Assembly: GCA_030673965.1 (NCBI GenBank)
Contig: JAUTCN010000010.1
Location: forward strand, 24,849 to 88,848
Direction of reading: 5' to 3'
Source of the DNA: Fusobacterium sp. JB019
Lineage (GTDB): Bacteria > Fusobacteriota > Fusobacteriia > Fusobacteriales > Fusobacteriaceae
DNA length: 64,000 nt
Shown: piece after piece, positions 6,209 through 50,878 of the stretch
Numbering within the stretch: the stretch's first letter is position 1
Layout: each line of letters opens with the position of its first letter
Notes under the pieces: model-generated
Told to the model about the DNA's origin: nothing
What the model saw: only the letters and a program-made list of their open reading frames with translations
The model's database searches: none
Program-made: the position numbers and the translations under genes

Positions 6209-7486
6209 TTAATATCTAATATTTATATAAATAAGACTTAATATAATAGATTGGATGACGATAATAATTCCCCATTTAAAAAATTCTTTGAAGCTGATTT
6301 CTATTCCTACTTTTTTAGAAACAGAAGTACCTACCATATTAGCGGCAGCCCCAACTATTGTCATATTTCCTCCTAGACAACATCCTAATGATAAAGCCCA
6401 CCATAAAGATTCCGTATTTCCTGTATAATTAGGAAGAATTTCTAAAACTAATTTTCCAAAGGATAAGCTTAAAGGGATAGACCCAACAATTGGAGATAAG
6501 ATTCCAGAAACTAAAACAAGAAGAGAAGAAGTTAACTTTAAATTTCCTTGAGTAAAAGTAACTACATAAGAACCAATAAATTCTATTATTCCTAGCTCTT
6601 CTAATCCTTGAATTAAAACAAATAAAGCTCCAAAGAAAAATAAAGTATCCCATTCTATTTTGCTAAATATCTCTTCTGGTTTTTTTTTAGAAATAAGTAC
6701 AAGGATAGAAGAACCTAAAATAGAGATTATTGCAAGTCCTATTTGTGAAAAAGAATTGGTTAAAAACCCTAAAATAACTAAAATAAAGATTAGACTAGAT
6801 TTGAATAATAAATTTTTATCTTTAATAATTCTGGAAGAATCAAGTTCCATTATACTAGCTTTTAATTCTCTAGAGACAATTAGTTTTTCTTTTAAAAATA
6901 AGCTGGCGGTAATTAAAAGAACAATAATATTAATAATAATAATGGGAGTTAAATTTATAATAAAATCATTAAAACCTCTGTTTGAAAGAGCTGCAATAAT
7001 TAAATTAGGAGGATCTCCTATCATAGTAGCGGTACCTCCAATATTAGACATAAAAATTTGCATTAAGACAAAGGGTTTTGGATCTAATTGTAATTTTTGA
7101 GCTAAAAATATGGTAATAGGAACGATTAATAAAATAGTAGTAACGTTATCTAAAAGAGCTGAGAAAAAAGCAGTAACAAGTGATAATAAGATAAGGATTT
7201 TGATAGGATTTCCCTTTGATACTTGAGCTAATTTAATTGCAATCCATTGAAAAATACCAGTTTCTGACATAATTTCAACAATCATCATCATTCCCATCAA
7301 TAAAATAAGAACTTCTAAATTATATCCAATTGTTTTTAAAGCAGTTTCCTCATTTAAAATATTAATAATAATCATTAAGGAAGCTCCAATAATAGTAACA
7401 AGTGATTTAGGGTATTTTTCTGTAATGATAAAATAAAAGGTTAATATAAATATTAAAAATCCGAGTATCATGTATAAATTTTCCAT
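6209..7486 (-). CDS. ArsB/NhaD-superfamily ion transporter (probable Na+/H+ antiporter)
   Basis: Polytopic inner-membrane carrier of about 425 residues with roughly 11-12 hydrophobic segments. Family marks are the inverted-repeat signatures GGTATMIGDPPNLIIAAL in the first half and GAAANMVGTSVSKKVG in the second, as in P-protein/ArsB/NhaD carriers. The frame is open 63 bases further upstream. The ATG at 7486 is chosen because AGGAGG lies 7 bases before it and the extension would be translated from a terminator hairpin. Substrate is inferred: Na+/H+ exchange is likelier than arsenite, since no arsenic gene is nearby. Its mRNA carries a terminator-containing leader that resembles the one before the antiporter at 50908. 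Confidence 0.85.
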   Translation of the reverse strand: MENLYMILGFLIFILTFYFIITEKYPKSLVTIIGASLMIIINILNEETALKTIGYNLEVLILLMGMMMIVEIMSETGIFQWIAIKLAQVSKGNPIKILILLSLVTAFFSALLDNVTTILLIVPITIFLAQKLQLDPKPFVLMQIFMSNIGGTATMIGDPPNLIIAALSNRGFNDFIINLTPIIIINIIVLLITASLFLKEKLIVSRELKASIMELDSSRIIKDKNLLFKSSLIFILVILGFLTNSFSQIGLAIISILGSSILVLISKKKPEEIFSKIEWDTLFFFGALFVLIQGLEELGIIEFIGSYVVTFTQGNLKLTSSLLVLVSGILSPIVGSIPLSLSFGKLVLEILPNYTGNTESLWWALSLGCCLGGNMTIVGAAANMVGTSVSKKVGIEISFKEFFKWGIIIVIQSIILSLIYINIRY

Positions 7487-7626
7487 AGTAAGCCTCCTAA
7501 ATGTAGTGTAAAAACAAAAAAACTCTATGAACCTTTTAAGGATGTTCATAGAGTTTTATATTAACTTCAAGCATTTAACAAGTTAGTTGAATGTTTGGAG
7601 AACTCTATCTCCAAGGTATTACTTAT
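7487..7626 (-). promoter_or_regulatory. Candidate riboswitch leader with transcription terminator, copy 1
   Basis: On the minus strand the transcript forms P1 (TTGGAGA/TCTCCAA, 7595-7614) with loop AGAGTT. Then come ATTCAA and AAATGCTTGAA, which can form a second stem, and last an intrinsic terminator whose 5' arm begins AACTCTATGAAC (7544-7555). The P1 loop (AGAGTT, at 7601-7606) is fully complementary to AACTCT (7550-7555) in that arm, so a loop pairing would block the terminator. A related leader with compensating changes lies at 50763-50878. What is seen is the pairing potential; ligand control is inferred. Confidence 0.72.
7513..7557 (-). terminator. Leader terminator before the ion transporter
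   Basis: A 12-bp perfect stem (AACTCTATGAAC/GTTCATAGAGTT), with an 11-base loop and a run of seven or more U residues on the minus strand. It lies between promoter and start codon, so it is an attenuator rather than an end-of-gene signal. Confidence 0.85.
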
Positions 7627-7632
7627 GTTAAC

Positions 7633-7661
7633 ATTATACTAAAAATTTATAAAATATTCAA
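7633..7661 (-). promoter_or_regulatory. Promoter of the ion-transporter leader
   Basis: Minus-strand TTGAAT, 17-base spacer and consensus TATAAT, just downstream of pyrG. Transcription should start near 7626. Confidence 0.8.
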
Positions 7662-50762: not shown

Positions 50763-50878
50763 TAAATAAAAAAGGAGAAGAGGCTCTCCTAAAAATTCAA
50801 AGATTATTTGGGTTTTGAAATGCTTGAAAAAGATGATGGCTTCTGTAAATATAATTTTATATTTACAGAAGCTTTTTT
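50763..50878 (+). promoter_or_regulatory. Candidate riboswitch leader with transcription terminator, copy 2
   Basis: P1 AGGAGA/TCTCCT (50773-50790) has loop AGAGGC. ATTCAA follows, then AAATGCTTGAA, then TGATGGCTTCTG. The loop AGAGGC can pair with GCTTCT (50839-50844), which is also the 5' end of the terminator stem. Copy 1 upstream of the transporter at 6209-7486 has the same order with AGAGTT pairing with AACTCT, so the pairing is kept while the bases change. The 3' part resembles the fluoride (crcB) riboswitch, but the conserved AUG in P1 reads AAG and the middle differs. Confidence 0.75.
50839..50878 (+). terminator. Leader terminator before the CPA antiporter
   Basis: A 15-bp perfect stem starting GCTTCTGTAAATATA with a 4-base loop and six T residues, placed between promoter and start codon. 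The preceding symporter gene has no other terminator, so the hairpin could also end its transcript. Confidence 0.9.

What the first reader, a model, noticed from the sequence alone, without database searches (positions are those of the whole stretch)
7487..7626. Second, related leader before an unrelated-fold ion transporter: evidence for a shared RNA class
Seen on the minus strand: P1 TTGGAGA/TCTCCAA with loop AGAGTT, then ATTCAA, then AAATGCTTGAA, then a terminator beginning AACTCT. Order and several exact words match the leader at 50763. The loop-to-terminator pairing is kept with different bases (AGAGTT/AACTCT here, AGAGGC/GCTTCT there), which is covariation. Two transporters of different families, both plausible Na+/H+ exchangers, share the element, so an ion or pH signal is the natural hypothesis.
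Basis: partly seen in the sequence, partly recalled or inferred. Interest (0 to 1): 0.85.

Follow-up and report, generated by a model that had tools for sequence, protein, structure and literature searches.

The report
Rewired copy of fluoride RNA switch
The leader in front of this transporter gene matches the known fluoride-sensing RNA switch in its first half but differs at ligand-core positions that are the same in all 42 relatives examined, so it is likely a copy of that switch that still turns the gene on by blocking a terminator, perhaps in answer to a changed signal.

Summary
In detail: a promoter-like site, hairpin aptamer, terminator and loop/terminator complement lie at 7661-7484 (minus). 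It is not a new class of two Na+ genes. The sister leader at 50763 is a fluoride (crcB) riboswitch: RF01734 30.8 bits (cut-off 34), E 4.7e-7, with matches in 41 of 61 family genomes (40 credible), before antiporter, CLC and CrcB genes. The 7487 leader fails RF01734 (9.1 bits), but a model of 19 local fluoride leaders picks only these two places in the window (53.1 and 21.3 bits, next 12.7), the G031 copy scores 29.6, and 0 of 5000 shuffles reach either copy. Against: genome-wide the window copy is at chance level (E 0.35). It keeps the P1-P2-P3 scaffold and terminator overlap, but differs where 42 of 42 relatives agree: A for G8, about 4 added bases, A for U48 (or a shifted register). It was found in 2 of 98 phylum genomes, 65 of 71 columns identical. 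Best reading: a duplicated fluoride riboswitch with a rewired core, working by pseudoknot antitermination; its ligand is untested.

The parts
7633..7661 (-). sigma-70-like promoter, TTGAAT-17-TATAAT
   Evidence: consensus scan, 10 of 12 matches; not functional proof
7544..7614 (-). class-B aptamer region, diverged from the fluoride riboswitch
   Evidence: R2 21.3 bits, E 0.0098 in the window; RF01734 only 9.1 bits; 65 of 71 columns identical to G031
7595..7614 (-). P1 hairpin TTGGAG/CTCCAA with loop ATAGAGTT (7608-7601)
   Evidence: sequence; fold
7577..7595 (-). P2, AACA (7595-7592) with TGTT (7580-7577), about 4 bp
   Evidence: R2 alignment; an inner AAC/GTT pairing is an alternative
7564..7576 (-). 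J2/3 AAAT and mini P3 GCT-TGA-AGT
   Evidence: R2 alignment; the P3 closing pair is G-U here and G-C in G031
7555..7563 (-). TAATA followed by the TAAA insertion relative to the fluoride relatives
   Evidence: 42 of 42 relatives have fixed spacing here
7548..7555 (-). pseudoknot strand AACTCTAT, complement of the P1 loop, inside the terminator 5' arm
   Evidence: sequence; 211 of 20,000 shuffles match 8 of 8
7516..7557 (-). intrinsic terminator: 14-bp stem (7557-7544 / 7532-7519) and T-run
   Evidence: fold; -15.9 kcal/mol.
6209..7486 (-). transporter gene, 425 aa from ATG 7486, PF03600/ArsB superfamily
50765..50852 (+). sister leader: fluoride riboswitch aptamer (A at position 7 instead of U)
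   Evidence: RF01734 30.8 bits, E 4.7e-7; R2 53.1 bits
50908..52116 (+). Na_H_Exchanger antiporter gene behind the fluoride riboswitch
   Evidence: PF00999 131.5 bits

Best explanation
The leader at 7614-7516 matches the local fluoride riboswitches in P1, P2, J2/3 and P3 but not in the ligand core, and it is likely a duplicated fluoride riboswitch that is predicted to switch its transporter gene on by holding the terminator's 5' arm in a pseudoknot. Shown: the match of the first half, the terminator, the complement of the P1 loop inside the terminator arm, and the core changes. Inferred: RNA polymerase transcribes P1-P2-P3; the P1 loop ATAGAGTT would pair with AACTCTAT; when this pseudoknot is held (by a ligand with Mg2+, as in the parent) the terminator cannot start and the gene is read; without it the 14-bp terminator forms. 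Inferred and undecided is the ligand: within this reading I give about 0.4 to fluoride kept with an adapted pocket, 0.35 to another ion or small ligand, and 0.25 to no ligand.
For: A covariance model (R2) of 19 fluoride leaders of the family (no row from G000 or G031) picks exactly 50771-50852 (53.1 bits) and 7552-7615 (21.3 bits, E 0.0098) in the window; the third is 12.7. G031's copy: 29.6 bits, E 1.4e-5 in its 5.5-kb locus, and E 0.0048 genome-wide. Reverse test: a model (R1) of the two class-B leaders over 98 genomes lists, by E-value after its own two rows, G032's fluoride leader first (29.0 bits, E 0.036), two apparent chance places, then G030's fluoride leader (27.3 bits, E 0.076). A sequence-only profile scores both copies above 5000 of 5000 shuffles of each. 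G031-B TTGGAGATAGGGCTCTCCAAACA against G032's fluoride leader TTGGAGATGAGGCTCTCCAAACA: 21 of 23 the same. Conserved between two species, 65 of 71 columns. The terminator overlaps the pseudoknot strand as in the parent, where strand exchange between pseudoknot and terminator base is the described mechanism (PMC13273304, passages).
Against: RF01734 itself does not recognise it (9.1 bits, E 6.4) and lists no hit for G031's copy at E up to 10. Against its whole genome the window's copy scores only E 0.35, level with a hit in an enolase-like coding stretch (21.3 against 21.8 bits; enolase recognised by eye). R1 does not find the window's own 50763 leader above chance (10.6 bits, E 5.1) and listed only 2 fluoride leaders among the 98 genomes at E up to 1, with stricter filters; one chance place has more bits, 29.8. 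Only two sequences exist, so class B has little covariation of its own: A-U to G-U at loop position 10, but U-A to C x A at position 12. The G031 pseudoknot run of 6 is not better than shuffles, and its loop/strand duplex is -4.6 kcal/mol against -7.0 here.
Confidence: 0.62

Rival explanations
1. It is still a working fluoride riboswitch with an unusual register: one extra A in the P1 loop and about 3 extra nt before the strand, so that G-C 8-47 and the A40-U48 linchpin are kept.
For: TAAT after P3 and CUA at the strand end fit a shifted register; the sister leader is a fluoride switch before an antiporter; all 7 genus genomes have one and none shows CrcB (0 of 7; the same search rings in 10 of 14 control genomes), so fluoride handling by other transporters is plausible.
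Against: In the straight register position 8 is A and position 48 is A; all 42 relatives have G8, U48 and fixed spacing. U48A abolishes the fluoride-locked state in the B. cereus switch (PMC8752731, abstract and passages).
Confidence: 0.25
2. It is an altered-specificity variant: the rewired core binds another ion or small ligand handled by the ArsB/CitMHS-type transporter.
For: Core positions changed while the scaffold and 65 of 71 columns between two species are kept; a different transporter family stands behind it; variants of other riboswitch classes have changed ligand through changes near the pocket (PMC7266159, passages).
Against: No ligand evidence; found in only two species (2 of 98); the longer pseudoknot could simply fill the pocket.
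Confidence: 0.22
3. It has lost ligand binding and acts as a ligand-free attenuator, set by Mg2+, temperature or polymerase speed, or it is decaying.
For: The pseudoknot may extend to 8 bp (-7.0 kcal/mol against -4.4 for a 5-bp fluoride-leader pseudoknot), through U7-A48 and A6-U49, which might occupy the ion site.
Against: 65 of 71 identical columns between two species argue against decay; in G031 the duplex is only -4.6 kcal/mol; the terminator is stronger than the pseudoknot in both (-15.9 and -17.5 kcal/mol).
Confidence: 0.16
4. The two leaders form a new Na+ or pH sensing RNA class.
For: Both stand before membrane transporters, one of them PF00999.
Against: 50763 is RF01734-like, and related leaders stand before CrcB (1), CLC (2) and PF00999 (5) among 10 downstream genes tested of 42.
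Confidence: 0.04

Closest known systems
Fluoride riboswitch (crcB motif, RF01734)
   Same: P1 with an 8-nt loop, P2 (absent in some), AAAYGC J2/3, P3, U-(G/A)-A-U, and a loop/terminator-arm pseudoknot overlapping an intrinsic terminator
   Different: G8 to A, position 9 to G, about 4 nt inserted after the UAAU, strand ACUCUA instead of strands such as GCUUCUAC or ACUCCUAC, longer potential pseudoknot, far below the Rfam cut-off (9.1 against 34 bits)
Na+-I (DUF1646) and Li+ (nhaA) riboswitches
   Same: Ion-responsive RNAs of sodium- or cation-related genes (starts of the abstracts of PMC9337991 and PMC9646797 in listings)
   Different: No match of the leaders to any other Rfam riboswitch at the gathering score or as a credible weak hit; motif consensus not compared by hand
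Fluoride riboswitch before CLC and NhaP antiporter in C. difficile
   Same: Fluoride switch in front of an antiporter gene (PMC11477304, passages), the precedent for the 50763 leader
   Different: Described there as a regular predicted fluoride riboswitch; no CitMHS/ArsB transporter

Membership tests
Fluoride riboswitch RF01734 (7487 leader) | Score at or above the curated cut-off of 34 bits | tested here: not met
   9.1 bits, E 6.4; no listed hit in G031's copy at E up to 10
Fluoride riboswitch RF01734 (7487 leader) | P1, P2, J2/3 and P3 scaffold | tested here: met
   R2 alignments; 0 of 5000 shuffles reach either copy; but genome-wide E 0.35 for the window's copy
Fluoride riboswitch RF01734 (7487 leader) | G8-C47, fixed A40-C44 spacing and U48, as in 42 of 42 relatives | tested here: not met
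   A8, about 4-nt insertion, A48 in the straight register; a shifted register would keep U48
Fluoride riboswitch RF01734 (7487 leader) | Pseudoknot strand lies in the terminator 5' arm | tested here: met
   the complementarity beats shuffles (about 1%) in G000 counted without G-U, and does not in G031
Fluoride riboswitch RF01734 (7487 leader) | Fluoride-dependent antitermination | not testable with these tools
   needs in vitro transcription or probing
Fluoride riboswitch RF01734 (50763 leader) | Score at or above the cut-off of 34 bits | tested here: not met
   30.8 bits, E 4.7e-7, just below; a long P2 insertion and one core change; four of the six other genus genomes exceed 34
Fluoride riboswitch RF01734 (50763 leader) | Related leaders before fluoride genes | tested here: met
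   CrcB 1, CLC 2, PF00999 antiporter 5, others 2, of 10 downstream proteins scanned out of 42 leaders
Fluoride riboswitch RF01734 (50763 leader) | G8-C47, U48 and fixed spacing | tested here: met
   it alone of 42 has A instead of U at position 7

The most novel reading that the evidence does not exclude
A fluoride riboswitch was duplicated inside one genus, placed before an ArsB/CitMHS-type transporter, and rewired at the Mg2+/fluoride site, giving the first altered-specificity descendant of the fluoride riboswitch: a young aptamer caught while changing ligand.
Probability: 0.22. Interest if true: 0.78.

Novelty: new variant of a known kind. Interest (0 to 1): 0.52.

Why it matters
Riboswitch variants with changed ligand are known for guanine, c-di-GMP-I and ykkC RNAs (PMC7266159, passages); none is named for the fluoride riboswitch in the passages I saw, nor evident in my paper-search listings. 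A parent-type switch and a rewired relative in one genome make a natural experiment on how an anion pocket built from three Mg2+ ions can change, and on whether the linchpin base pair is truly indispensable.

Tried and rejected
New class independent of Rfam: rejected, since 50763 matches RF01734. Na+-I or Li+ riboswitch: no match. Wider spread of class B: model R1 over 98 phylum genomes, with stricter filters, gave 17 matches at E up to 1: G000 and G031 strong, two fluoride leaders (G032, G030), and 13 others that I take, by eye, as chance. The pattern scan of genome contigs gave 19 stretches; read by eye, none has the downstream P3, pseudoknot strand and terminator, so I take them as chance. 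That scan leaves out the window's genome and near ones, so it had no positive control. Leaders before other transporter copies: no match better than E 0.36 in 21 loci (20 of the 28 other fetched transporter loci, plus L107). BLAST of the leader in 61 genomes: 56 have some match at E up to 1, but only G031 (E 8e-29) matches over most of the length; the next genome, G001, has 23 bases at E 8e-4, not examined. A pairing of loop 11-14 with the P3 3' strand is also possible in both copies; noted by hand and not pursued.

Rows dropped: L104 and L105 (21.5 and 18.9 bits) from 44 matches as chance, leaving 42. L105 is the only match of genome G051, so 40 of 61 genomes keep a credible match. Alignments A1 (wrong coordinates) and A4 (held L104) were discarded; A2 was not used for a model. 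One search stopped with a script error after most of the pair counts; the planned column counts and shuffle test did not run, and only its printed part is used.

Full report
What is there. On the minus strand a promoter-like TTGAAT-17-TATAAT (7661-7633) is followed by TTGGAG-ATAGAGTT-CTCCAA (P1), a short P2, AAATGC, a mini P3 (GCT-TGA-AGT), TAATATAA, and a 14-bp terminator whose 5' arm begins AAAACTCTATGAAC; then AGGAGG and the ATG at 7486. The P1 loop is the exact complement of AACTCTAT in that arm; 211 of 20,000 shuffles of the downstream stretch do as well, or 1807 if G-U is allowed. The gene upstream is CTP synthase (PF06418) and the gene downstream is a rubrerythrin.

What the sister leader is. 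The 50763 leader matches the fluoride riboswitch, RF01734, over the full model at 30.8 bits, E 4.7e-7, just under the cut-off of 34. In 61 genomes of the same family RF01734 has a match at E 0.01 or better in 41, and over the cut-off in 37; dropping two chance matches leaves 42 leaders in 40 genomes. I scanned 10 of the 42 downstream genes, chosen by me and not at random: PF00999 antiporter 5, CLC 2, CrcB 1, others 2. C. difficile has a published parallel, a fluoride switch before CLC and an NhaP antiporter (PMC11477304, passages seen). No CrcB family gene was found in the genus (0 of 7 genomes; the control rings in 10 of 14).

Is the 7487 leader related to it? Rfam alone says no (9.1 bits; no listed hit in G031). 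A local model (R2) of 19 fluoride leaders, none from G000 or G031, says yes: over the whole window with filters off, 50771-50852 scores 53.1 and 7552-7615 scores 21.3 bits (E 0.0098), the next place 12.7. The orthologous leader in genome G031 scores 29.6, E 1.4e-5 in 5.5 kb and E 0.0048 against its genome. The window's copy genome-wide is only E 0.35, level with a hit of 21.8 bits inside an enolase-like coding stretch, so the case rests on both copies together. The reverse model (R1, two class-B leaders) over 98 phylum genomes ranks, by E-value after its own two rows, G032's fluoride leader first (E 0.036) and G030's fourth (E 0.076), with apparent chance places between, one of them with more bits (29.8). 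R1 does not find the window's own 50763 leader above chance (10.6 bits, E 5.1). A sequence-only profile puts both copies above 5000 of 5000 shuffles each. The closest match in words is G032's fluoride leader: 21 of 23 positions of P1 and its flank are the same as in G031-B.

How it differs. In 42 of 42 relatives (12 distinct loop/strand pairs) the loop has G8 with C47, position 48 is U, and the spacing from A40 to C44 is fixed; 41 of 42 have U7, the exception being the window's own 50763 leader. These 42 were found with RF01734, which favours such features, so strongly altered relatives could have been missed. Class B has A8, about four extra bases (UAAA or CAAA) before the strand, and A48 if read straight. 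A shifted reading (extra A in the loop, about three extra bases) would keep U48; two sequences cannot decide. In B. cereus U48A abolishes the fluoride-locked state (PMC8752731, abstract and passages), and U41A removes the fluoride response (PMC11077080, passages; U41 is kept here). Class B could extend its pseudoknot to U7-A48 and A6-U49; the relatives have U7 against U48 in 11 of 12 distinct pairs.

Is it kept? G000 and G031 share 65 of 71 aptamer columns. Of the differences, loop position 10 (A/G against U) and the P3 closing pair (G-U/G-C) keep pairing; loop position 12 (U/C against A) does not. The loop/strand duplex is -7.0 kcal/mol in G000 and -4.6 in G031. The transporters of the two genomes form one clade (support 100/100), in a group with the genus' other copies except G034's (support 87/87, drawn open; the long branch of the C22 paralogue is unsure). 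In 20 of the 28 other fetched transporter loci R2 finds no leader better than E 0.36. G000 also has two further paralogues on contig C22, without this leader.

How it most likely works. As in the fluoride switch, where the pseudoknot strand swaps into the terminator base (PMC13273304, passages), the P1 loop would hold the first bases of the terminator arm and let polymerase pass. All steps after the sequence facts are inferred; the ligand is unknown. The gene is of the CitMHS/ArsB superfamily (PF03600 272.8 bits, ArsB 81.0, Na_sulph_symp 72.1, NhaB 38.8; nearest solved chain an arsenical pump, E 1.7e-15; no NCBIfam model over its cut-off), so its substrate does not name the ligand.

Naming. 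Position numbers follow the fluoride-switch numbering seen (A40, U41, U48); numbering of the P1 loop (A6, U7, G8) and the part those bases play in the crystal structure are recalled, not read here.

Literature. Searches for fluoride-riboswitch variants or Fusobacterium listed no altered-specificity fluoride variant; I saw listings and passages only, and the founding 2012 paper is not held.

Noticed in passing
window 50771-50852 (+): The genome's own fluoride leader has AAG in the P1 loop where all 41 other relatives have AUG: U7 to A, an otherwise constant position; A7 could pair U48.
   Followed up: partly
G000 and six other genus genomes: No CrcB/Fluc family gene in 7 of 7 genus genomes, although all 7 have a fluoride-type leader; the gene behind it is PF00999 in the two tested (window, L095) and looks alike by eye in the others, so it may be the fluoride-defence transporter here.
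   Followed up: partly
L016 1501-1573 and L106 2458-2532: Two fluoride leaders of the family precede unusual genes: a protein with a weak, sub-cut-off NifU-like match and a GGGtGRT protein (PF14057).
   Followed up: no
G046:C15, L061, L145-L147: Copies of this transporter subfamily with stops inside, or cut at contig ends, in several genomes.
   Followed up: no
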